NCBI RefSeq assembly: GCF_001570525.1
Contig: NZ_BBXC01000007.1
Span: forward strand, 795,364-859,363
Direction: 5' to 3'
Length of the DNA stretch: 64,000 bases
DNA from: Herbidospora sakaeratensis
Lineage (GTDB): Bacteria > Actinomycetota > Actinomycetes > Streptosporangiales > Streptosporangiaceae
Shown: positions 42,111 to 54,355 of the stretch, in pieces
Layout: every line of letters begins with the position of its first letter
Position numbering within the stretch: position 1 is the stretch's first letter
The notes under the pieces: model-generated
The model's input: the letters and a program-made list of their open reading frames with translations, nothing else
Told to the model about the DNA's origin: nothing
Databases searched by the model: none
Program-made: the position numbers and the translations under genes

Positions 42111-43173
42111 CCTCGGCCTGCGCCGGTTCCCCGACGACCCGCGCGACCCGTTCCGGGCCTGGGACGCCGCCGACGAGTACCTCCTCGGCGAGCTCGGCGA
42201 ACCCCACGGCACGGTCGTCGTGTTCGGCGACCGCTGGGGCGCGCTGGTCACCGCGCTCGCGGCGCACCGGCCCGTCCAGATCACCGACTCCTACCTGACC
42301 CAGCAGGCCACCCGGGCCAACCTGGCCCGGCTCGGCCTGCCCGAGGCCACGCTGCTGTCGACCCACGACGCCCCGCCGCCCCGCGTCGACACGCTGCTGG
42401 TGCGCATCCCCAAGAGCCTCGCCCTGCTCGAAGACCAGCTGATCCGGCTCGCGCCGGCGGTCCACGAGGGCACCCGCATCCTCGGCGCGGGCATGGTCAA
42501 GGAGATCCACACCTCCACGCTGGCCCTGTTCGAGAAGATCCTCGGCCCCACCCGCACCTCCCTCGCGGTGAAGAAGGCCCGGCTGATCTTCACCGAGCCG
42601 CGCCCGACGCCGGTCGCGAGCCGGTTCCCGGTGACGTACCGTCACGAGGGCCTCGACCTGGTCAACCACGCCGGGGTGTTCTGCGCCGACCGGCTCGACG
42701 TCGGCACCCGGTTCTTCCTGAAGCACCTGCCCGCGACCGTCAAGGGGGAGCGGGTCGTCGACCTCGGCTGCGGCAACGGGATCGTCGGGGCGTTCGTGCT
42801 GCGCGACAACCCCGACGCCGAGGTGCTGTTCGTCGACGAGTCCTACGCGGCCGTCGCCTCGGCCCGCGCCAACGTGCCGGGCCCGGCGGAGTTCCGGGTC
42901 GCCGACGGGCTGGCCGGCGCCGAGCCCGGGTCGGCCGACCTGGTGTTGTGCAACCCGCCGTTCCACGCGCACCAGGCCGTCACCGACGCGACGGCGTGGC
43001 GCATGTTCACCCAGGCCAAGCAGGCCCTGCGGCCCGGCGGCGAGTTGCGGATCGTCGGCAACCGGCACCTCGGCTACCACGTCAAGCTGAAGCGCCTGTT
43101 CGGCAACGCCGCTCTGGTCGCCGGCGATCCGAAGTTCGTCGTGCTGAGCGCGGTCAGGCGCGGGCCTCGATGA
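42094..43173 (+). CDS. RlmG/RsmC-like rRNA guanine-N2 methyltransferase
   Basis: A 359-residue protein with a duplicated methyltransferase fold: a degenerate N-terminal domain (about 1-190) and a C-terminal MTS domain with SAM motif VVDLGCGNGIVG and catalytic NPPFHAHQAVTDATAWRMF. This matches RlmG and RsmC, which methylate guanine N2 in 23S or 16S rRNA; the length (~375 for RlmG) and NPPFHxxH motif favour RlmG. The target base cannot be told. It overlaps the YchJ gene upstream and, by 20 bases, the convergent methyltransferase gene. Confidence 0.87.
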   Translation: MSPLSDLGLRRFPDDPRDPFRAWDAADEYLLGELGEPHGTVVVFGDRWGALVTALAAHRPVQITDSYLTQQATRANLARLGLPEATLLSTHDAPPPRVDTLLVRIPKSLALLEDQLIRLAPAVHEGTRILGAGMVKEIHTSTLALFEKILGPTRTSLAVKKARLIFTEPRPTPVASRFPVTYRHEGLDLVNHAGVFCADRLDVGTRFFLKHLPATVKGERVVDLGCGNGIVGAFVLRDNPDAEVLFVDESYAAVASARANVPGPAEFRVADGLAGAEPGSADLVLCNPPFHAHQAVTDATAWRMFTQAKQALRPGGELRIVGNRHLGYHVKLKRLFGNAALVAGDPKFVVLSAVRRGPR

Positions 43174-44209
43174 CCAGGTTGAAGTCGGTCGTCAGGGCGG
43201 TGCGCACCCGGCCGAAGCCGGCCTCGCGCAGCAGCGCCTCGATGCGCGCGGGGCCCGACTGGTTGCCCAGCCCCAGCCTGGCGCCCTCCGACAGGCCGTG
43301 CGGCAGGCAGAGCATGACCGACGACCCCGCGTAGATCGCCGCGATCGGGTTGCCGATCGTGTCCTCCAGGCGGTCGGCCGAGAAGGGCTCGACGACCAGG
43401 ACGGTGCCGCCCTCGGCCAGCGCCGCGCGGGCCCGGGACGCCGCCGTCACCGGGTCGCCCATGTCGTGGAGGGCGTCGAAGAAGCAGATCAGGTCCCATT
43501 CGCCGTACTGCTCCTCGCCCGAGTCGGCGACGTGGAAGTGCACCCGGGCGTCGACCCCGGCGTCCTTGGCGGCCAGGCGGGCCGCCTCGATCGACGGCTC
43601 GTGGGTGTCGACGCCCTCGAAACGGGAGTTCGGGTAGGCCTCGGCCATCAGGATCGACGACGTGCCCATGCCGCAGCCGACGTCGAGCACGCGCGCCCCG
43701 GCGGCCAGCCGCTCGGTGACGCCGTCGAGGGCGGGCAGCCAGTGGTCGATCAGGCTGAACCGGTAGAGCGGGGCGAAGAACCGCGAGACGCCGTCGAAGA
43801 GGTTGTCGTCGTGGCGGTCCCAGGCGAATCCCTCGCCGGTGCGGAACGCCTCGGCCAGATGGTCGGCGGCCTTCCACGAGGCGGCCTGAATTTGCGAGGC
43901 CGAGGCGCGGGCGGCGATCGTGAGATCGTCGGCCAGCACCAGGGCGTGCTCGTCGGGCAGGGTGAACGTGCCCGCCTCGGGGTCGTAGCCGACGTGCTCG
44001 GCGACGGCCTGCACCCGCAGCCACTCGCGCACGTACCGCTCGGACAGGCCCGTGCGGGCGGCCAGGTCGGCGCTGGTGAGCGGGCCGGCGCCGGCCATGG
44101 CGCGGAAGAGGCCGAGCCGGTCGCCGAGGTGCGTCTGGAGGGTGAGGCCGGAGCCGAGGGCCTCCAGGGTGATCTTCATCGCGAAGTCTTCGATTTTCTT
44201 GGTGTCCAT
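43154..44209 (-). CDS. Class I SAM-dependent methyltransferase with N-terminal winged helix
   Basis: A 351-residue protein. The N-terminal ~100 residues form a winged-helix dimerisation domain (LTSADLAARTGLSERYVREWLRVQAV), as in plant-type O-methyltransferases, and the C-terminal part has SAM motif VLDVGCGMGTSS, acidic VDTHEPS and a C-terminal motif SADRLEDTIGNP. Small-molecule O- or C-methylation is expected. The ATG at 44209 has AGGG at proper distance; an ATG at 44227 is an alternative. It is divergent from a chloroperoxidase-type hydrolase across an inverted repeat. Confidence 0.87.
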   Translation of the reverse strand: MDTKKIEDFAMKITLEALGSGLTLQTHLGDRLGLFRAMAGAGPLTSADLAARTGLSERYVREWLRVQAVAEHVGYDPEAGTFTLPDEHALVLADDLTIAARASASQIQAASWKAADHLAEAFRTGEGFAWDRHDDNLFDGVSRFFAPLYRFSLIDHWLPALDGVTERLAAGARVLDVGCGMGTSSILMAEAYPNSRFEGVDTHEPSIEAARLAAKDAGVDARVHFHVADSGEEQYGEWDLICFFDALHDMGDPVTAASRARAALAEGGTVLVVEPFSADRLEDTIGNPIAAIYAGSSVMLCLPHGLSEGARLGLGNQSGPARIEALLREAGFGRVRTALTTDFNLVIEARA

Positions 44210-44232
44210 GTCGTACACCCTGCCCATTTCGC

Positions 44233-44281
44233 ATTTCACCGCCCTTTCACCGTTCTGTCGCGGGTCATGAAAGGGTGAAAT
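44233..44281. promoter_or_regulatory. Inverted repeat in divergent promoter region
   Basis: ATTTCACC-GC-CCTTTCA (44233-44249) is mirrored by TGAAAGGGTGAAAT (44268-44281), an inverted repeat with 18 bases between the arms and two extra bases in the left arm. It lies between the methyltransferase and hydrolase genes; TTGACG at 44296 could be a -35 for the hydrolase. It is a candidate two-sided operator, binding protein unknown. Confidence 0.45.
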
Positions 44282-44347: not shown

Positions 44348-45151
44348 ATGCCGTACATCACCGCGAACGACGGGGTCAGGATCTTCTACAAGGACTGGGG
44401 GACCGGGCAGCCCGTCGTCTTCAGCCACGGCTGGCCGCTCACCGCCGACGTCTGGGACGGCCAGCTGCGCCTCGTCGCCGAGCACGGCTTCCGGGGGCTG
44501 GCCCACGACCGGCGCGGCGGCGGGCGGTCCGACCAGCCGTGGAACGGCAACGACATGGACACCTACGCCGACGACCTGGCCGCCCTGCTCGACACGCTCG
44601 ACCTGCGCGACGTCGTCCTCGTCGGCCACTCGACCGGCGGCGGCGAGGTCACCCGCTACATCGGCCGCCACGGCACCGCCCGGGTCGACAAGGTGGTGCT
44701 GGTGAGCGCGGTCCCGCCGCACATGGCCGCCTCGATGCCGATCGAGGTCTTCGACGAGATCCGCGACGGCGTGGCGGGCGACCGGTCCCAGTACTACAGG
44801 GAGCTCGCGCTGCCCTTCTACGGCTTCAACCGGCCCGACGCCGAGATCAGCCAGGGCGCGATCGACGCGTTCTGGATGTGGAGCATGCAGGTCGGGGTCA
44901 AGAGCGCCTTCGAGTGCGTACGGGCGTTCTCGGAGACCGACTTCACCGAGGACCTGGGCCGGATCGACGTGCCGGTCCTGGTCGCCCACGGCGACGACGA
45001 CCAGATCGTGCCGTTCGAGGCCTCAGCCCCGAAGACGGCCCGGCTGATCCCCGACGCCACCCTGCAGATCTACCCGGGGGCGCCCCACGGGATCAGGGGC
45101 GCGTACGAGAAGGCGTTCGACGCCGATCTGCTGACGTTCATCTCGAAGTAG
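44348..45151 (+). CDS. Alpha/beta hydrolase of the non-heme chloroperoxidase/arylesterase type
   Basis: A 267-residue protein with the typical start [18 protein letters not shown], oxyanion region FSHGWPL, nucleophile Ser95 in [10 protein letters not shown], Asp in [10 protein letters not shown] and His in APHGIRG. Members hydrolyse esters and can show perhydrolase (chloroperoxidase) activity. The length is normal for the family. It is divergent from the methyltransferase gene and overlaps the convergent deaminase gene by 14 bases. Confidence 0.92.
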
Positions 45152-45620
45152 CGACGCGGTGGTGCAGGGCCTTCATCTCGGCCTCCAGCGCGGGGATCGG
45201 GCCCTCGACGATCACGCCGGGCGCGACCTCCTGGATCGGGAGGGGGCGCACCGGCGCCGACGGCGCGCCCCACCCGTCGCGCCACTCGGACAGCTGAGCG
45301 GCCGAGACGACGTACACGATGCGGCCCAGGCCCACCCACGCGTGGGCGGCCGAGCACATCGGGCAGTGTTCGCCGGAGGTGTAGACGGTCGCGCCCGCCC
45401 GCTGCTCCGGCGTCAGGTTGTTCGCGGCCCAGCGGGCCAGGTCGAACTCGGGGTGGCGGGTCTGGTCGCCGGCGGCGGTCCGGTTGTGGTCTTCGGCCAG
45501 GACGGTCCCGTCGGCCGAGGCCAGCACCGAGCCGAACGGCTCCTCGCCCGCCTCGAACGCCTCGTGGGCCAGCTCGACGCAGCGCCGCAGATGCCGCAGG
45601 TCCGTCTCGGAAACCGCCAT
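45138..45620 (-). CDS. Nucleoside/nucleobase deaminase of the CDA fold
   Basis: A 160-residue protein. The zinc site is visible: His56-Pro-Glu58 ([10 protein letters not shown]) and Cys86-x2-Cys89 ([13 protein letters not shown]), with PFGSVLA before it, as in guanine- and tRNA-type deaminases. The usual HAE is HPE here, as in several actinobacterial relatives. The ATG lies 2 bases after the stop of the upstream sugar permease gene, so translation is coupled to the ABC transporter. That suggests the imported compound or its product contains an amino group, or a nucleobase part, which is inference. Confidence 0.87.
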
Positions 45621-45622
45621 CG

Positions 45623-46447
45623 TCACCCTTTCACCGCACCGACCAGCCCGTTGACGAAGTAGCGCTGCAGGAACGCGAACAGCGCGATCACCGGCAGCAC
45701 CATGATCAATGATGCCGCCAGCACCTCGTTGTAGCGGACGACGGTACCGGAAATCAGGGACTCCAGCCCGAGGGGCAACGTGTAGAGCGACTTGTCGTTC
45801 AGGGAGACCCGGCTCAGCACGTACTCGTTCCACGTCGGGACCGCCGTCAGCACCGCGATCGTGATGTGCGCGGGCCGGGTCAGCGGCAGGTAGACGCGCA
45901 GGTAGATGCGCGCCTCGCCGGCGCCGTCGGCCCGCGCGGCCTCGCGCAGCTCCTTCGGCACGCTCCGGTACGCCGCCGTCAGCAGCAGCACCGTCAGGGG
46001 GGCCGTGCCGTTGACGAAGGGCAGCACCAGCCCCATGTGGGTGCCGAGCAGGCCCAGCCGGTTCTCCAGGATCACCACCGGCAGCAGCACCGTGATCCCC
46101 GGCACGAACAGCAGCGCCACGAACAACCAGTAGAGCGTCTTGGCGCCCGGGAACCGGAGCACCGCGAACGCGTAGGACGCCAGGCTGTAGACCACCAGGA
46201 CGCCCAGCACCGTCAGGCCGGTCACGATCAGGCTGTTGCGGAAGTAGTCGACGAACGCCAGCTGGTTCCACGTGGTCACGAGCGTGTCGAAGGTCGGCTC
46301 GCGCGGGATCAGGTGGCCGCCGTCGAGGATCTCCTCCCGGGTCTTGAACGCCCCCGACACCATCCACAGGAACGGATAGAGGCTCAGCGCGGCGTAGCCG
46401 ATCAGCGCCGCGTAGGCGGCGGTCTTCGCGATGCGGGCGGCGGTCAC
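45623..46447 (-). CDS. Sugar ABC transporter permease (MalG-like)
   Basis: A 274-residue inner-membrane permease with six hydrophobic spans and the EAA loop EAARADGAGEARIYLRVYLP, the ATPase contact site. The GTG start overlaps the stop of the preceding permease by 4 bases and is preceded by GGAGGG. It forms a heterodimer with the MalF-like protein. No cognate ATPase gene lies in the cluster, so a shared MsiK-type ATPase is likely, as is usual for CUT1 importers in actinobacteria. Confidence 0.93.
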   Translation of the reverse strand: MTAARIAKTAAYAALIGYAALSLYPFLWMVSGAFKTREEILDGGHLIPREPTFDTLVTTWNQLAFVDYFRNSLIVTGLTVLGVLVVYSLASYAFAVLRFPGAKTLYWLFVALLFVPGITVLLPVVILENRLGLLGTHMGLVLPFVNGTAPLTVLLLTAAYRSVPKELREAARADGAGEARIYLRVYLPLTRPAHITIAVLTAVPTWNEYVLSRVSLNDKSLYTLPLGLESLISGTVVRYNEVLAASLIMVLPVIALFAFLQRYFVNGLVGAVKG

Positions 46448-47367
46448 CGCACCCTCCTCAGCAGCCGGGCGTTGGCCAGCGTCAGCAGCACGGCCGCCAC
46501 GAACAACAACCAGCCGAGCGCGCTCGACAGGCCGAGCGTCGGCGCCAGCCCCTTGAAGAAGGCCAGCTCGTAGGTCTCCAGGGCGAGCACGTTGGTGTGC
46601 CCGCCGGGCCCGCCGTTGGTCATGATCAGGAAGATCTGGAACCCGTGCAGCGAGTCGCGCACGCCCAGCAGCACGATCCCGGCCGTCATCGGCGTCAGCA
46701 GCGGCACGATGATGCGCCGCAGCACCTGGCGCGGGGCCGCGCCGTCGATGCGGGCGGCCTCGACCATGCTCGGGTCGATCGCCTGGAGCCCGGTCAGGTA
46801 GAGCAGCGTCGCGGTCGGCACCGACGACCAGACCAGGATCAGGATCAGCGTCCAGAGCGCCGTCGACGGGTTGGCCAGCCAGCCCTGGGGTTGCGCCAGC
46901 GAGCCGAGGCCGACCGAGCGCAGCATCAGGTTGATCGAGCCCTCGGGTTCGAGCAGGTAGCGCCAGGCGTAGTAGGTGGCGATGCCGGTGGTGACGTACG
47001 GGAGGAAGTAGACCGAGCGCAGCAGCCCCCGCAGGCGGCGCACGGAGTTGAGCATGACCGCCAGCGGCAGCGAGATCAGCACGGTCAGCAGCGGCACCGC
47101 CAGGCACACCTGGAGGGTGTTCCAGGCGGCCCGGCGCACCCCCGGGGCCAGCGACGGGTCGGCCCACAGCAGGTCGGCGTAGTTCTCCAGGCCCACCCAG
47201 ATCCACTCGGGGGTGAAGCCGTTCCACGACGCGAAGCTGAGCGCCAGGCCGCTGCCGATCGTGTAGACGCCCATCAGGGCGAAGAGGGCCACGGCCGGGA
47301 ACACGAACGCCCAGCCGGTGACCCACTCCCTCCACCGGGTCGGCCTGGTTATTCGGCGGACTTCCAC
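46444..47367 (-). CDS. Sugar ABC transporter permease (MalF-like)
   Basis: A 307-residue inner-membrane permease of the CUT1 family with six spans (first at about 19-40) and EAA loop EAARIDGAAPRQVLRRIIVP. The GTG start overlaps the 3' end of the binding-protein gene by 19 bases; its stop overlaps the MalG-like gene by 4 bases. Tight coupling shows the three genes act as one importer. Confidence 0.93.
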   Translation of the reverse strand: MEVRRITRPTRWREWVTGWAFVFPAVALFALMGVYTIGSGLALSFASWNGFTPEWIWVGLENYADLLWADPSLAPGVRRAAWNTLQVCLAVPLLTVLISLPLAVMLNSVRRLRGLLRSVYFLPYVTTGIATYYAWRYLLEPEGSINLMLRSVGLGSLAQPQGWLANPSTALWTLILILVWSSVPTATLLYLTGLQAIDPSMVEAARIDGAAPRQVLRRIIVPLLTPMTAGIVLLGVRDSLHGFQIFLIMTNGGPGGHTNVLALETYELAFFKGLAPTLGLSSALGWLLFVAAVLLTLANARLLRRVR

Positions 47368-48743
47368 ATTGCTCCGAAGATCGCGTCGAGCTCCTTGCCG
47401 GCCTGCGCCGGGCCGAGCTCCTTCAGCGGCGTCAGGCGGACGAACGCGTCACCCGGTTTGACCTGGTCGTAGCCGCCGGGGAAGAACGTCGTGTCGCCCG
47501 CGTCGTAGGTGCTCGCCGGGTCGCCGGTGAAGTACTTCTGCAGCGCGGCCAGCTCGGGCCCCATCAGCGTGGTGGCCTCGGCGCCCAGGTCGGTGGCCGG
47601 GAGGTCGAGCGACTCCTTGGCCACGATGCCCGCCCCGGCCGGCGAGGTGACGTAGTCGATCCACTTCAGCGCCGCGGCCCGGTTCTTGGACGTCGAGGTC
47701 ACACCGAGGGAGGTCAGGGCCAACGGGGCCATCACGATGTCCTTGTGCGCCCCGGACGCCGACGGCGGGATCGGGAAGGTGAGCACCTTGTCGGGCGACA
47801 TGCCGTTCTGGGCCAGGAACGCGAGGGTGAAGGTGCCGCCGACGTTGTAGGCCGACTTGCCCTGGGCGAACGCGATGTCGGCCTCGTCGATCCCGAGGGT
47901 CGTCGCGCCGGGCATCCAGTAGGGGGTGAGCTGCGCGAAGAGGTCGAGGGTCTTGACCCCGTCGGGCGAGCCGAACCCGGCCGTCGTGTCCTTGGCGAAC
48001 AGCCCCTGGAACTTCTCCTTGCCCAGGTAGGCGTGGGCGAGCGGCTGGTAGATCCAGTTGAAGCCGACCTGGCTGACCTTCAGGCCGAGCGACAGGCCGC
48101 CCGCCTGCGGGTCCTTCTCCGTGGACGTCTTCAGCGCCGCCACGAACTCCTCCCAGCTGGCCGGGGGAGTGTCGGGGCTGAGCCCGGCCGCCTGGAGCTT
48201 CTCCTTGTTGGCGTAGACGATGCCGAACGCGCCGGCCGTGAACGGGACGGCGTACATCGACCCGGCCTTGGCCTGCTTGAACGGCGAGTCGGCCGCCGCG
48301 CGGTCGATCCGGCCCTGGTCGAGCACGCCCGCGTTCTGCGTGGACGGCAGGAACCGGCCCTTCCAGGCGTCGTTCACGTCGCCGCTGATGTCGGCGAGCA
48401 GGCCGGACGCGCCGAGCTCCAGGTCCTCGCCCGCGGCGTGGGCCTCCAGCACGTCGGGCAGGTCGCCCGTCTGGGCGGCGCTCTGGATCTTGCTCTTGAA
48501 GACGTCGTCGGGCGTGACGGCCTCGACCTGCACGCCGATGCCGGTCTGCGCGGTGAACTGCTCGGCGGCCTTCTGGAGTGCGGCCGCGTGGGACTGCTTG
48601 AAGGTCCACATCGTTATCGACTGTCCGGACGCGGCCGGTTCGCCGGTCTGCCCGCCGGTCTGCCCGCCGCCTGACGAACAACCGGCGGCCACCAAGGTGG
48701 CGACGGCGGCCAGGGACAGGATTCGCGCTTTCATAGATGCCAT
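47349..48743 (-). CDS. Sugar ABC transporter substrate-binding lipoprotein
   Basis: A 464-residue extracytoplasmic protein with a lipoprotein signal ending VAAGC at about residue 22, then a CUT1-type binding fold (SITMWTFKQS, VEAVTPDDVFKSKIQSA, GSMYAVPFTAGAFGIVYANKEKL). The ligand is not readable, but the neighbouring mannonate-dehydratase-like and dehydrogenase genes suggest an oligosaccharide or sugar acid. A TTGACA/TAAATT promoter and a LacI-like palindrome lie in the 77-base gap upstream, so it can be transcribed separately from the regulator gene. Confidence 0.92.
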   Translation of the reverse strand: MASMKARILSLAAVATLVAAGCSSGGGQTGGQTGEPAASGQSITMWTFKQSHAAALQKAAEQFTAQTGIGVQVEAVTPDDVFKSKIQSAAQTGDLPDVLEAHAAGEDLELGASGLLADISGDVNDAWKGRFLPSTQNAGVLDQGRIDRAAADSPFKQAKAGSMYAVPFTAGAFGIVYANKEKLQAAGLSPDTPPASWEEFVAALKTSTEKDPQAGGLSLGLKVSQVGFNWIYQPLAHAYLGKEKFQGLFAKDTTAGFGSPDGVKTLDLFAQLTPYWMPGATTLGIDEADIAFAQGKSAYNVGGTFTLAFLAQNGMSPDKVLTFPIPPSASGAHKDIVMAPLALTSLGVTSTSKNRAAALKWIDYVTSPAGAGIVAKESLDLPATDLGAEATTLMGPELAALQKYFTGDPASTYDAGDTTFFPGGYDQVKPGDAFVRLTPLKELGPAQAGKELDAIFGAMWKSAE

Positions 48744-48765: not shown

Positions 48766-48817
48766 GCAAATCGTTAAGACTGTCCCTGGAATTTACACGC
48801 GGGAAATCCTCTGTCAA
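48766..48817 (-). promoter_or_regulatory. Promoter and degenerate LacI-type operator of the transporter genes
   Basis: On the minus strand TTGACA (48812-48817) and TAAATT (48790-48795) are 16 bases apart. Just downstream of the expected start lies GCAAATCGTTAAGA (48766-48779, plus-strand reading), which matches 10 of 14 bases of the perfect palindrome before the enzyme genes and keeps the central CG. The same regulator could control both. Confidence 0.55.
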
Positions 48818-48820
48818 GGG

Positions 48821-50362
48821 TCAGGCCGACTGGCGGCGGACCAGCCGGGCCGGGATGATCGTCTCGGTCGAGCTCTCGGCGACCGTGCCCGACAGGCGGG
48901 CGAGCAGGCGTTCGCCGCAGGCCCGGCCGATCTCGCGGGCCGGGTTGGCCATCGTGGTCAGCCGGGGCGAGACCAGGCTCGCGGCCTCGATGTCGTCGAA
49001 GCCCATCACCGCCAGGTCGCCGGGGATGCGCAGGCCGCGGGCCAGCGCGGCGTCGATCGCGCCCAGCGCCATGATGTCGTTGGCGCACAACACGGCGTCG
49101 GGCGGGTCGGGCAGGCCGAGCAGCCACGACGTGCCGCCCGCGCCGCCCGAGCGGCTGAAGCTGGTGTGCACGACCAGCCGGGGGTCGGCCTCGATCCCGG
49201 CCGAGGCCAGGGCCAGCCGGTAGCCGGAGACACGCTCGGCGGCGGGGCCCTCGGCGCGCGGGCCGCAGACGAAGCCGATACGCCGGTAGCCGGTCTCCAG
49301 CAGGTAGCGGGTCGCCTCGGCCGCGCCGCCCTCGTCGTCGCTGTGCACCAGGTCGACCCCGTCCTGCACCTGCACGCCGCCCAGCCGGACCACCGGCAGC
49401 CCGGCCTCGATCACCGGCAGCAGGTCTTCGGCGTGGGTGTGGAAGACGGCGAACGCCAGGCCGTCGACCTGCCGGGCGATCATCTGCTCGATCGCGGCAC
49501 GTTCCATGTCGCGGTCGCCGTCGGTGTTGCTGATGATCTCGTCGTAGCCGGCCGGGCGCAGCACGTCCTGCAGCCCCCGGGCCAGCGCCGGGTAGAACGG
49601 GTTGGTGATGTCGGGGATGACCAGCCCGATCGTCTGGCTGCGGTTGGTGCGCAGCCCCCGGGCCAGCACGTTGGGCCGGTAGCCGAGCCGGTCGATCGCC
49701 TCGAGCACCCGCCGCCGGGTCTCGGCCGCGACCGGGCGGCGGCCGTTGAGCGTGTGGGACACCGTGGTCGCGCTGACCCCGGCCGCCTGCGCGACCAGCA
49801 GGATGCTCGGCCGCCGGGCGTCGGCGCGCGGAGCGGGGGCGCGGCGCACCGGCGGCGCGGCGAAGGAGGCCAGCGCCTCTTTCAGCTCGTCGCGGGCCTG
49901 CTCGGCGGCGGTGGGCGCGGGCGTGCCGTCGGCCACCCGCAGGATCGCCGACTCCCACACCCGCCGGGCCGCCGCCGCGACCAGCGCGCCGGTCACCCCG
50001 GCGCCGAGCTCCTCCTCACGCGCCGCGAACGCTTCGCGGGCGTGCGCCCGCAGGCCGGCGTCGTCGCGGTAGACCCGCGCCCGCTCCGGGTCGAGCACGC
50101 CGGTCGCGGCCACCCACCCGGCCACGACCTGCGGCACCGGCTCGGAGGGCAGCGGCCCGCGCGGCAGCAGCGGCGGGTCGGCGTCGAAGAACAGCTGCTC
50201 CTTGGCCGGGAAGTAGTTGAACACCGTCTTGACCGCGACGTCGGCCTCGGCGGCGACGTCGGCGACCGTGACGGCCGCGAACCCGCGTTCGGCGAACAGC
50301 CGCAGGGCGGCCCCGGTGATCGCCCGGCGCGTCTCGGCCTTCTTCCGCTCCCGCCGATCCAT
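48821..50362 (-). CDS. TetR-LacI fusion transcriptional regulator
   Basis: One uninterrupted 513-residue frame holds two complete regulators. Residues 1-170 are TetR-like: HTH at 14-56 ([20 protein letters not shown], then [12 protein letters not shown]) and a helical C-terminal domain ending [10 protein letters not shown]. After a Pro/Arg/Ala linker, residues 187-233 are a LacI HTH ([21 protein letters not shown], then [10 protein letters not shown]) and 243-510 the periplasmic-binding-type sensor ([48 protein letters not shown]). The lengths equal a usual TetR plus a usual LacI. A GTG at 49849 could start a separate LacI protein but has no ribosome-binding site. It sits between the enzyme and transporter genes, whose promoters carry LacI-type palindromes. 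Start ATG 50362 may be leaderless. Confidence 0.88.
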
Positions 50363-50408
50363 GGAGGGATCGTATATCCACACGCACCTTGCACCCGATG
50401 TAACTTCG

Positions 50409-51704
50409 TCACGGGGGTTCAACACCCCCGTCGGGGCGGCGGACGCGGGCCGACCAGCGCTCGTGGAGGTGCGTCACCGGCGGGTGCTTGGCGGCGGCGC
50501 GTTCGTCGAGGTCGACGCCCCAGCCCGGGGCGTCGTGGGGGAACAGGTAGCCGCCGACAGGGTTGATCGTGCCCGGGAAGACCTCGACGACCGGATCGGG
50601 GTAGACGTGGCCCTCCTGGATCTGGAACGCGTGGGTGGTGACGTCGAGCGCGATGTTGGCCGCCGAGCCGACGGGCGAGACGTCGGCGGGGGAGTGCCAG
50701 GCCGTGCCGACCCCGTTCAGCTCGCACAGCGCGACCAGTTTCCTGACCGGGGTGAGCCCGCCGACGGCCGAGACGTGCAGCCGGAGCAGGTCGACCCCGC
50801 CGTTCATGACCAGCCGGGCCGCGTCGGCGACCGAACCGAGTTGCTCCCCGGCCGCGATCGGCATCGGCGCGGCTACCCTGACCTCCGGGAGGCGGTCGTA
50901 GTACTCGGGCGCGATGGGGTCTTCGAGGAAGAACAGCCGGTACGGTTCGAGCGCCCGCGCCAGCTGCACCGCCTGCTTCACGGTGAGCCGCGAGTGGACG
51001 TCGTGCAGCAGCCCCGGCTCGTCGCCCAGCTCGTGGCGGGCCCGCTCGAAGAGTCTCGGGGTCTCCCGGAGGTAGCGCTGGACGTCCCAGCCGTCGGGGT
51101 AGGGCGCGTCCGGGTAGCCGTTGGGGGAGCCCGGCGCGCCGTAGTGGCCGAGGCCGGGCGCGCCGGTCTGCAGCCGGACGTTGCGGTAACCCGCGTCGAG
51201 GAGCCGGCGGGCGTGGTCGAGGGTGGCCTCGACGGTCGCGCCCTCGGCGTGGAGATAGGTGTCGGCGGCGGCCCTGACCCGCCCCCCGAGGAGCTCGTAG
51301 ACGGGCATGCCGGCGCGTTTGCCCATGATGTCCCACAGGGCCTGGTCGACGCCCGAGAGCGCGCTGTTCAGCACCGGCCCGCCCCGCCAGTACGACGAGT
51401 AGTGCACCATCCGGACGATGTCCTCGATGTCGGCCGGATGGCGGCCGACCAGCATGGGGCCCACGTGCTCGTCGACGGCGGCGGCCACGGCGTGGAAGCG
51501 CTGGGTGAAGGTGGCGCAGCCCAGGCCGTACAGGCCCGGATCGGAGGTGTCGACCCGCACCACCACCAGCGGCGGCCCGCCGGGCGCGGTCACGATCGAC
51601 CGGACCCCGGTGATCTTCAGGTTGTCGCGCGGCGGCCAGGGCGCCTGCGTCTCGGGGATCACGCGGCGGGACCGGGCGGAGCGGCGGCCGGCATGGGTCT
51701 CCAT
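50409..51704 (-). CDS. Enolase-superfamily D-mannonate dehydratase/RspA-like enzyme
   Basis: A 431-residue protein with GGAGG before the ATG. Active-site features of the mannonate dehydratase subgroup are visible: Arg177 and Tyr188 in [15 protein letters not shown], metal ligands Asp235, Glu261 and Glu287 ([26 protein letters not shown]), His237 two residues after the first ligand, and His337 in TAWHSP. Family members dehydrate D-mannonate or D-gluconate to 2-keto-3-deoxy acids; many have low activity and other roles, so specificity is uncertain. The start overlaps the dehydrogenase stop by one base. Confidence 0.9.
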
Positions 51705-52555
51705 CAGACCTCCATCGGGAAGAGGTGCCGGGCGCGAAAGCCGAGCAGGGTCTCGGCGACCGTCAGATCGATGGGCGCCTCGCGGCCCTCGAACGGCCTG
51801 CGCCGTTCGACGCCGGGGTGGAAACGGTCGAGCAGCTCCTCGGTCGGCTGCGGGGCGAGGGTGTTCGGGGCCGTCACGAACACCGCGTGGTAGCCGGTGA
51901 GCGGGGCCGTCACGGCCAGCCAGGCCGCGCGGGCGGCGTCGCGGTCGTCGAGGTAGGTCCACAACTCGGCGGCCCCGGAGCCGGGGTCGTCCGCGTAGCG
52001 GGCGGCGGTGGTGTCGAACTTGTCGCCCGGCCCGCCGAGCAGCGGATAGCGCAGCGCCACCACGCCCATGCCGAAGCGCCGGGCCATCATCGCGCCGGTG
52101 GCCTCGTCGGCCTGCTTCGACAGCCCGTAGGGGTCCTCGTTCTGGAGCGGGAGCCGCTCGTCGATCGGCAGGTAGGCGGGGTGCAGCGGCTTGGCCGCCC
52201 ACGGCATCCCGGTCACCGACAGGCTGCTGGCCAGCGCCACCCGGGACACCCCGGCCTGCCCGGCCTCCTCCAGGACCACGAAGGTCGAGCGGGTGTTGCC
52301 CGCGTAGACCGCCACCGGCGTGCCGAGCGTCGGCGCGGGGATCGCCGCGAAGTGCAGCACCGCGTCGACCCCGGCCAGCGCCCGCCGGACCGTCGCCGGA
52401 TCGCCCGCGTCGCCCGCTACGGCCCCCGGCGCGTCGAGGGGTTCCCGATCGAGCGCGGTCGCCTCGACCCCCAGCTCGGCCAGCAGCGCGAGCGTGGCTT
52501 TCCCCAACCTGCCGGCGGCCCCCGTGACCAGCACCCGGCGGGGTGTGTCGGCCAT
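51704..52555 (-). CDS. NAD(P)-dependent extended SDR (uronate dehydrogenase/epimerase-like)
   Basis: A 283-residue Rossmann protein with GAAGRLG (12-18), Ser110/111 and the Tyr143-x3-Lys147 pair in YGLSK. Length and the neighbouring mannonate-dehydratase-like gene fit a uronate or sugar dehydrogenase, though epimerase is possible. GAGAGG lies eight bases before the ATG. It is first in the enzyme operon, and a perfect LacI-type palindrome starts 15 bases before its start codon. Confidence 0.88.
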   Translation of the reverse strand: MADTPRRVLVTGAAGRLGKATLALLAELGVEATALDREPLDAPGAVAGDAGDPATVRRALAGVDAVLHFAAIPAPTLGTPVAVYAGNTRSTFVVLEEAGQAGVSRVALASSLSVTGMPWAAKPLHPAYLPIDERLPLQNEDPYGLSKQADEATGAMMARRFGMGVVALRYPLLGGPGDKFDTTAARYADDPGSGAAELWTYLDDRDAARAAWLAVTAPLTGYHAVFVTAPNTLAPQPTEELLDRFHPGVERRRPFEGREAPIDLTVAETLLGFRARHLFPMEV

Positions 52556-52569
52556 TCGATCATCCTCTC

Positions 52570-52618
52570 GCAAAACGTTTTGCTTTCGAGCAAAACCCAG
52601 GGTGTGGGGGATTGTCAA
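52570..52618 (-). promoter_or_regulatory. TTGACA promoter element with perfect LacI-type operator
   Basis: GCAAAACGTTTTGC at 52570-52583 is a perfect 14-base palindrome with the central CG typical of LacI-family sites; a second half GCAAAAC starts at 52590. A consensus -35 TTGACA lies at 52613-52618 (minus strand), putting the palindrome near or just after the transcription start of the dehydrogenase/dehydratase operon. It is the likely site of the adjacent TetR-LacI regulator. Confidence 0.75.
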
Positions 52619-52690
52619 CGTACTTCGCCTGGGGATCTTGTAGTCGGTATATCAACCGGGCCCGCAGGCCTACGCTGGTCGCATGGTCGC

Positions 52691-53710: not shown

Positions 53711-54250
53711 CTACGGGAAGCGGATGAAATTCGGGGGCACGTGGGGGACCAGCCACACGCCGTTCGCGCTGACCCGGAACTCGTGGCCCTCGGCGTGCAT
53801 GCGGCCCGACTCGACGGTCAGCACGATCGGGCGGCCGCGCCGCGCGCCCACCCGGGTGGCCGTCTCGACGTCGGGAGACAGGTGCACGTGGTGCCGCGCC
53901 ATCTTCACCAGCCCCTCGGCCCTGATCGCGGCCAGCGCCGCCGGGGCGGTCCCGTGGTAGAGCACGGCGGGCGGCTCGACCACGGGCAGGTCGAGGTCGA
54001 CCTCGATCGAGTGGCCCTGGCTGGCCCGGATGAGGCCGTCGTGGATGACGTACCGCTTCTTGTCGTTGGCCTCGACCACGTGGTCGAGCTCGGCCCGGTC
54101 GAAGGGGAAGCCGTGCGCGGCGGCGGCCGCGATCAGGGCCTCGACGGGGGTCCAGCCCTGCTCGTCGAGGACGAGGCCGATACGGCCGGGCTCGTGCCGC
54201 AGGTGCTTGGCCAGGTATTTCGAGATGCGCACCATGCGCCGTTCGTCCAT
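53711..54250 (-). CDS. kptA: RNA 2'-phosphotransferase (Tpt1/KptA)
   Basis: A 179-residue protein with the full family pattern: RISKYLAKHLRHEP at the N-terminus, ANDKKRYVI, RASQGHSIEVDL, LYHGTAPAAL, HVHLSPDVETATRVGARRG and RRGRPIVLTV, containing the conserved Arg-His-Arg-Arg set. It removes a 2'-phosphate from RNA using NAD+, or may act in ADP-ribosylation of nucleic-acid ends; the bacterial role is unsettled. The internal ATG at 54250 was chosen because MDERRMVRISKYL matches the family start. Confidence 0.92.
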   Translation of the reverse strand: MDERRMVRISKYLAKHLRHEPGRIGLVLDEQGWTPVEALIAAAAAHGFPFDRAELDHVVEANDKKRYVIHDGLIRASQGHSIEVDLDLPVVEPPAVLYHGTAPAALAAIRAEGLVKMARHHVHLSPDVETATRVGARRGRPIVLTVESGRMHAEGHEFRVSANGVWLVPHVPPNFIRFP

Positions 54251-54263
54251 GGTCGTCGAGTGT

Positions 54264-54280
54264 GGCCGGAAAAACCGGCC
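54264..54280. promoter_or_regulatory. Small palindrome between kptA and the GH128 gene
   Basis: GGCCGG-AAAAA-CCGGCC forms a perfect 6-bp inverted repeat around five A residues, 14 bases before the kptA start and about 76 bases before the GH128 start. Could be an operator or a hairpin; nothing decides between them. Confidence 0.35.
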
Positions 54281-54355
54281 GCCGTCTTCCCGATTTCTGT
54301 TATCCGCAGGTCGTGGCGGGGTCTCCGGTTCAGACATCCCCTACGAAGGACAACC

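What the first reader, a model, noticed from the sequence alone, without database searches (positions are those of the whole stretch)
48821..50362. Continuous TetR-LacI double regulator
A complete TetR-type protein (HTH 14-56 plus helical ligand domain) is joined in frame by a ~15-residue linker to a complete LacI protein (HTH 187-233, sensor 243-510). Two DNA-binding heads and two ligand domains in one chain would allow two-input control or DNA bridging between sites. The LacI part has a possible internal GTG at 49849 without ribosome-binding site.
Basis: partly seen in the sequence, partly recalled or inferred. Interest (0 to 1): 0.8.

Follow-up and report, generated by a model that had tools for sequence, protein, structure and literature searches.

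The report
Natural TetR-LacI two-headed gene regulator
Some soil actinobacteria carry a regulator in which two ordinary kinds of DNA-binding repressor, TetR and LacI, are joined in one protein, and the promoter it probably controls often carries a predicted binding site for each half.

Summary
Window 48821-50362 (-) is one open frame of 513 aa: TetR HTH, nine-helix TetR body, a disordered linker of about 14 aa, then a full LacI repressor. It is no sequencing error: 7 of 7 genomes of the genus (Herbidospora, inferred) and 29 of 36 ortholog-bearing genomes among 341 of the family have the same in-frame fusion. Sister lineages have the LacI gene alone, in Microbispora at the same place in the same sugar-acid operon, with no TetR gene nearby. 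The two halves share one history.

New here: the LacI operators (O1, O2) are alike with and without the TetR head. A 17-bp palindrome sits 42-43 bp before the start codon of the fused gene in 25 of 29 fused loci, and no such site is found in 14 close standalone ones. It recurs 55-78 bp upstream of O1 in 15 of 24 fused loci. I read it as the operator of the TetR head, used for autoregulation and as a second grip on the LacI-controlled promoter. Bridging by one dimer is inferred. 'Two inputs' is doubtful: the TetR ligand region is poorly conserved and has long indels; the LacI sensor is conserved. Binding was not tested.

The parts
48821..50362 (-). TetR-LacI fusion regulator, 513 aa
   Evidence: open frame; Pfam; full-length orthologs in 7 of 7 genus genomes, own one included
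49859..50362 (-). TetR module (aa 1-168): HTH 15-59 and C-terminal helices
   Evidence: Pfam TetR_N; AF2 nine helices; Foldseek matches to TetR structures such as MftR and SCO0337
49811..49858 (-). disordered inter-module linker (about aa 169-184)
   Evidence: pLDDT below 50 at 169-182; dN/dS 0.15 for aa 167-184
48824..49810 (-). LacI module (aa 185-513): HTH, hinge, sugar-binding-type sensor
   Evidence: Pfam LacI and Peripla_BP; RbsR, PurR and CcpA lead the structural matches
50388..50404 (-). candidate TetR operator at the fused gene's own promoter (GTTACATCGGGTGCAAG)
   Evidence: same place (-42/-43) in 25 of 29 fused loci at leave-genus-out score 12 or more, 0 of 14 close standalone loci; one exact copy in the genome
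50369..50374 (-). putative -10 element (TACGAT; TAAGAT in many relatives), 6 bases before the ATG, so a leaderless transcript is likely
   Evidence: aligned upstream regions of the fused loci; function inferred
52637..52653 (-). candidate TetR operator upstream of the Udh promoter (GATATACCGACTACAAG)
   Evidence: best-scoring site of the 20-kb stretch scanned, under a motif made without Herbidospora; one exact copy in the genome
52613..52618 (-). TTGACA, putative -35 element between TetR box and O1
   Evidence: sequence; TTGAC stands upstream of O1 in 21 of 21 aligned loci, Microbispora included
52570..52583 (.). LacI operator O1, perfect palindrome GCAAAACGTTTTGC
   Evidence: only place in the genome within 1 mismatch; same or close variants in fused loci and in standalone Microbispora
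48766..48779 (-). LacI-type operator O2 (TCTTAACGATTTGC) between the regulator and the SBP gene
   Evidence: CTTAACG(A/T)TTTG found within 600 bases after the regulator in 26 of 29 fused and 11 of 14 close standalone loci
51707..52555 (-). NAD-dependent epimerase/dehydrogenase, uronate-dehydrogenase-like ('Udh')
   Evidence: Pfam Epimerase; weak matches to several sugar-nucleotide epimerases and to uronate dehydrogenase 3rft
50412..51704 (-). ManD-like enolase-superfamily sugar-acid dehydratase ('MR')
   Evidence: Pfam MR_MLE; best PDB match is a putative ManD-family dehydratase; NCBIfam ManD below its cut-off
47352..48743 (-). ABC sugar-type solute-binding protein (SBP)
   Evidence: Pfam SBP_bac_1
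46447..47367 (-). ABC permease 1
   Evidence: Pfam BPD_transp_1
45626..46465 (-). ABC permease 2
   Evidence: Pfam BPD_transp_1

Best explanation
It is one polypeptide with two working DNA-binding heads, formed when a MftR-like TetR coding sequence was joined in frame to the 5' end of a LacI-family sugar-acid regulator in the Streptosporangiaceae. The LacI half keeps its ancestral job: it binds O1 (Udh-MR promoter, P1) and O2 (ABC transporter promoter, P3) and is released by a sugar-acid effector. The TetR half adds a second DNA specificity: it binds a 17-bp palindrome overlapping the -35 region of the fused gene's own promoter (P2, autorepression) and, in most lineages, a second copy just upstream of the P1 -35. 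At P1 the TetR box and the LacI box bracket the promoter, so one dimer could hold both at once and make repression cooperative, with the LacI sensor deciding release. Shown: single frame, conservation, shared history of the halves, conserved sites in fused loci. Inferred: that the TetR head binds the palindrome, simultaneous binding, autorepression, the effector.
For: Of 55 distinct loci 29 are fused, 25 standalone, 1 cut by a contig end; the 29 are 29 of the 36 ortholog-bearing genomes among 341 in the family. TetR_N matches 29 of the 46 members of an alignment of 29 fused and 17 standalone proteins (which gives the number and not the names). No conserved internal start: 5 of 29 have no ATG/GTG/TTG within 65 codons upstream of the LacI head, while the 14 close standalone genes have a candidate start 4-7 codons before it. 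Linker coding constraint. TetR and LacI identities correlate, r 0.82, 0 of 2000 permutations as high, 23 sequences. Same operon order with LacI alone in Microbispora. O1 and O2 shared by fused and standalone. Palindrome at -42/-43 with score 12 or more in 25 of 29 fused, 0 of 14 close standalone loci, Mann-Whitney p 3.5e-7; symmetry 5.0 of 8 pairs against 1.3-3.0 at 10 slid registers. Second copy 55-78 bp upstream of O1 in 15 of 24 fused loci, scored with the own genus left out; for the 12 of them, no other 101-bp window of the locus (own promoter and O1 surroundings excepted) scored as high.
Against: No binding or expression data. The P1 TetR box is missing in 6 of 24 fused loci (5 Planotetraspora, L125) and weak and further away (112-113 bp) in 3 Acrocarpospora, where in 2 of the 3 a few other windows score as high. 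Four of 29 fused loci fall under score 12 at P2: L018 and L019 have a weak box, L021 and L023 none recognisable. Only one standalone locus (Microbispora) has the same P1, so the P1 contrast rests on n = 1. Four of 11 distant standalone loci (2 Kribbella, 2 Catenulispora) reach 13.1-14.5 upstream of LacI. The fused label is not one clade on the LacI tree (3 changes, open backbone). Helical phasing of the spacings is only suggestive (Rayleigh p 0.026 at 10.5 bp, 8 values; 0.02-0.13 at the four other periods tried).
Confidence: 0.68

Rival explanations
1. The palindromes belong to another regulator; the TetR part is only a tether or dimerisation module on an otherwise ordinary LacI repressor.
For: The site-to-protein link is by association only. 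TetR relatives are common in the family (97 of 120 genomes have a match at E 1e-12). The TetR C-terminal part drifts fast. Four distant standalone loci also have fair matches.
Against: The TetR HTH is conserved (0.76-0.88 in blocks 1-60; dN/dS 0.23), which a mere tether would not need; the palindrome goes with the fusion (25 of 29 against 0 of 14 close standalone); it sits at the gene's own promoter, as is usual for TetR regulators (recalled).
Confidence: 0.16
2. A true two-input switch: the TetR half also senses its own ligand, so that two different signals must agree.
For: The model has the nine helices of a TetR fold and matches TetR structures including SCO3201 with a putative ligand and KstR.
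Against: The ligand-domain part is poorly conserved and interrupted by insertions of up to 67 and 47 aa in relatives; its dN/dS is the highest of the five regions, 0.37.
Confidence: 0.2
3. Two proteins are made: the fused chain and a separate LacI from an internal start.
For: GTG at 49849 in the window; a GTG at codon -61 with an SD-like GGAG in 7 of 7 Herbidospora; GGAGG before GTG at -34 in 3 Nonomuraea.
Against: The 49849 GTG is GTC in the 6 other Herbidospora sequences; the -61 GTG lies inside the TetR body; I see no start shared between genera, and 5 of 29 loci have none within 65 codons.
Confidence: 0.08
4. Sequencing or assembly artefact joining two genes.
For: None found.
Against: Same reading frame in 29 distinct loci of several genera with TetR-to-LacI distances of many different lengths.
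Confidence: 0.005

Closest known systems
LacI/GalR family (RbsR, CcpA, PurR)
   Same: LacI HTH, hinge and periplasmic-binding-protein-like sensor; CG-centred palindromic operator at a local sugar operon
   Different: carries a TetR module at its N terminus; a survey of the family speaks of a rigid domain structure (PMC4052901, passages seen)
MftR-type TetR regulators
   Same: TetR_N and nine-helix fold; 3 of 46 members match Pfam TetR_C_14 (MftR C-terminal domain); MftR 8x0a among the best folds
   Different: not a free protein; C-terminal part interrupted in relatives; fused to LacI
Mce3R, double TetR repressor (PMC11667970, abstract and outline seen)
   Same: two DNA-binding heads of repressor type in one natural chain
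   Different: both heads are TetR and together bind one asymmetric site; here the heads come from two families and seem to have separate palindromes
Engineered TetR-LacI tether in Drosophila (PMC7619058, passages seen)
   Same: same two families in one chain, built to hold tet and lac operator arrays together
   Different: man-made; the present one is natural and sits at an operon
AraR (GntR-type HTH with LacI-type sensor; mentioned in PMC4052901, passages)
   Same: a LacI-type sensor joined to a foreign HTH
   Different: AraR has the foreign head in place of the LacI head; here both heads are present

Membership tests
LacI/GalR family | LacI HTH plus periplasmic-binding-like sensor | tested here: met
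   PF00356, PF00532 and PF13377 above cut-off
LacI/GalR family | CG-centred palindromic operators at regulated genes | tested here: met
   O1 GCAAAACGTTTTGC and variants conserved; in silico only; O2 is palindromic on one side only
LacI/GalR family | two-domain architecture with no other DNA-binding domain | tested here: not met
   TetR_N at 15-59
TetR family | TetR_N HTH | tested here: met
   PF00440, 58.9 bits against cut-off 24
TetR family | all-helical C-terminal ligand and dimerisation domain | tested here: inconclusive
   nine helices predicted, Foldseek TM up to 0.63 with TetR structures; sensing unproven
TetR family | palindromic operator at its own promoter | tested here: met
   25 of 29 fused loci at score 12 or more; in silico only
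Mce3R-like double TetR repressor | two TetR domains in one chain | tested here: not met
   one TetR_N stretch; second head is LacI
Either family | ligand-released DNA binding | not testable with these tools
   needs protein and effectors

The most novel reading that the evidence does not exclude
A natural two-headed repressor in which one homodimer grips a TetR box and a LacI box 55-78 bp apart on either side of a promoter, closing a very small DNA loop, while the TetR head alone also autorepresses its gene and the LacI sensor gives the only signal: a natural counterpart of the engineered TetR-LacI bridge.
Probability: 0.4. Interest if true: 0.75.

Novelty: new variant of a known kind. Interest (0 to 1): 0.62.

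Why it matters
LacI and TetR are model repressor families and standard parts of synthetic circuits, and a TetR-LacI fusion has been built to bridge DNA. A natural, conserved fusion with paired sites would show how evolution adds a second DNA specificity to a local repressor without a second gene. The standalone relative in Microbispora, with the same operon order and the same LacI operator, offers a with-and-without comparison. Seven searches of the held open-access library listed no natural TetR-LacI fusion; I saw titles and abstract beginnings, and only the top 20, 10 and 10 of 134, 14 and 1,401 papers.

Tried and rejected
Separate TetR gene beside the standalone LacI as source of the fusion: a TetR-head HMM found none in the flanks held (mostly 8 kb a side) of the 25 standalone loci. 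A TetR box beside O2: none among the five top hits per locus except weak ones in Herbidospora (score 6). Widespread use of the boxes: with 2 mismatches the own genome gave 4 hits for the P2 box against 10 for the reversed control and 3 for the P1 box against 1, in each case one exact hit at this operon, so the regulator looks local. Single origin on the tree: not shown; the backbone is open. Helical phasing: suggestive only. PMC5882156 (passages) counts companion domains per family; the passages seen do not name this pair. (uronate dehydrogenase with LacI) led nowhere useful.

Full report
What is there. Window 48821-50362 (-) encodes one 513-aa frame with TetR_N at 15-59 and LacI plus sugar-binding sensor at 190-512, all above Pfam's cut-offs. 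The genome is G000; its nearest named relatives, 95-97% identical over the whole protein, are Herbidospora galbida and H. cretacea, and their LacI parts are identical to those of two same-genus genomes, so the window is taken as Herbidospora (inference). AlphaFold2 gives two compact modules (1-168, all helical, nine helices; 187-513) and low confidence at 169-182 and at the LacI hinge 232-240. The LacI module matches RbsR, PurR and CcpA; the TetR module alone matches MftR, SCO0337 and other TetR structures at TM up to about 0.6.

It is not an artefact. The own genome and the 6 other genomes of the genus searched carry the full fused frame. In the family, 36 of 341 genomes have an ortholog at E 1e-100 or better. 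Taking together, these are 29 fused, 6 standalone (4 Sphaerisporangium, 1 Microbispora, and the 53%-identical G028) and 1 cut by a contig end (G189, match beginning at base 47 of its contig). With the genome-contig scan (best 80 of 357 relatives kept) there are 55 distinct loci: 29 fused, 25 standalone LacI, 1 cut (L035). The 21 fused proteins listed are 513-674 aa, with TetR-to-LacI distances of many lengths. The fused genera named in the scan are Herbidospora, Acrocarpospora, Nonomuraea, Planotetraspora, Microtetraspora and Streptosporangium; the close standalone ones (LacI identity over 65%, 14 loci) are Sphaerisporangium, Microbispora, Phytohabitans, Asanoa, Virgisporangium and Rhizocola.

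One chain or two. The 14 close standalone LacI genes have a candidate start 4-7 codons before the LacI head, 12 of them with an SD-like motif. In fused loci I see no start near that place shared between genera; 5 of 29 have none within 65 codons. Against this, 7 of 7 Herbidospora have a GTG with GGAG at codon -61, inside the TetR body, and 3 Nonomuraea a GTG with GGAGG at -34. The window's GTG at 49849 is GTC in the 6 other Herbidospora sequences, and the linker shows coding constraint (dN/dS 0.15). The identities of TetR and LacI parts correlate (r 0.82, 0 of 2000 permutations, 23 sequences), so the halves have travelled together. On the LacI tree the fused rows need 3 changes of state with an open backbone, for example one gain and two losses; a single origin is neither shown nor excluded.

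Where it sits. In the window the gene lies in Udh - MR - [regulator] - SBP - permease - permease, all on one strand. MR is closest to ManD-family dehydratases but below the NCBIfam ManD cut-off; Udh is a weak match to sugar-nucleotide epimerases and uronate dehydrogenase. So a sugar-acid operon is likely and the substrate unknown. The order varies among fused loci: Planotetraspora and L131 lack MR, and six Nonomuraea loci (L019, L023, L026, L055, L130, L133) gave no Udh or MR match. Microbispora has the window's order with LacI alone. No standalone locus has a TetR-head HMM hit in its flanks, so the TetR head was probably brought in rather than fused from a neighbour.

LacI sites. O1 (GCAAAACGTTTTGC, 52570-52583) is unique in the genome within one mismatch; it or a close variant occurs at the Udh promoter of fused loci and of Microbispora. 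O2 (TCTTAACGATTTGC, 48766-48779 on the minus strand) follows the regulator in 26 of 29 fused and 11 of 14 close standalone loci. So the LacI half kept its sites after fusion.

Candidate TetR sites. Upstream of the fused gene a 17-bp palindrome stands at a fixed place, 42-43 bp before the ATG. Scored with a motif built without the own genus, 25 of 29 fused loci reach 12 or more, each at that place; the four that do not are L018 (10.7, at that place), L019, L021 and L023. None of 14 close standalone loci reaches 12 within 300 bp (best 10.9; Mann-Whitney p 3.5e-7); 4 of 11 distant standalone loci do (2 Kribbella, 2 Catenulispora, 13.1-14.5). Symmetry is 5.0 of 8 pairs at this register and 1.3-3.0 at ten shifted ones. 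A -10-like TAAGAT or TACGAT follows, ending 6 bases before the ATG in the window, so the transcript may be leaderless (inference), which would explain the missing ribosome-binding site.

Pairing at P1. Of the 29 fused loci, 24 have an O1 upstream (20, 4 more; in L133 only what looks like the beginning of a Udh gene follows it); L019, L023, L026, L055 and L130 have none. In 15 of 24 the same palindrome lies 55-78 bp upstream of O1: Herbidospora 7 of 7 (70 bp), Microtetraspora 1 of 1 (65), Streptosporangium 3 of 4 (67, 68, 78; the last is a separate genus in GTDB terms), Nonomuraea 4 of 4 (55, 57, 57, 58). For the 12 of these, no other 101-bp window of the locus, outside the surroundings of the own promoter and O1, scored as high, and the reversed-sequence control in the same place scored -2.8 to 7.2 against 14.8-21.7. 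The palindrome is weak and 112-113 bp away in 3 Acrocarpospora and absent in 5 Planotetraspora and one Streptosporangium (L125), and in Microbispora, the only standalone locus with this P1. A TTGAC -35 lies between the box and O1. The eight distinct spacings lean to one helical face (Rayleigh p 0.026 at 10.5 bp; 0.02-0.13 at 9.5, 10, 11 and 11.5 bp), which is only suggestive.

Mechanism. I propose a LacI-type local repressor with an added TetR head: the LacI head on O1 and O2 as before, the TetR head on its own promoter and beside O1. One dimer carrying both heads could hold both sites of P1. Sensing most likely stays with LacI: the TetR HTH is conserved (0.76-0.88 in blocks 1-60), its C-terminal part less so (0.50-0.72, insertions up to 67 aa; dN/dS 0.37). 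All binding steps are inferred.

Known or new. Two-headed natural repressors exist (Mce3R, two TetR heads; abstract seen), LacI-type sensors with a foreign head exist (AraR, mentioned in PMC4052901), and a man-made TetR-LacI fusion has been used to hold DNA sites together (PMC7619058, passages). Searches of the open-access library listed no natural TetR-LacI fusion, but some listings were capped and papers outside that library were not searched. I therefore rate it a new variant of a known kind.

Noticed in passing
window 53711-54337 (-): RNA 2'-phosphotransferase (KptA/Tpt1 type; that name is recalled), above the NCBIfam cut-off, near this operon.
   Followed up: no
window 45141-45641 (-): A cytidine/deoxycytidylate-type deaminase follows the permeases in the window and in the four other Herbidospora loci with long flanks (L015, L016, L134, L135); no match at E 1e-15 in the other fused loci there.
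   Followed up: partly
window 48766-48779 and flanks: O2 (TCAGTCTTAACGATTTGC in many loci) is better conserved on its non-palindromic side than a LacI operator would need, in fused and standalone loci alike; reason unknown.
   Followed up: no
L019, L023, L026, L055, L130, L133: These Nonomuraea-group loci keep the fused regulator without a Udh or MR match; L130 still has a second candidate TetR box 96 bp upstream of the first, and L133 keeps the TetR box and O1 pair.
   Followed up: partly
L034, L022, L028, L106 upstream of the fused gene: In four of five Planotetraspora loci a second candidate TetR box (score 13.2) lies 17 bp downstream of the first, near the -10, while P1 lacks one.
   Followed up: no
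window 43157-44233 (-): Methyltransferase with an Rv2258c-like winged HTH domain.
   Followed up: no
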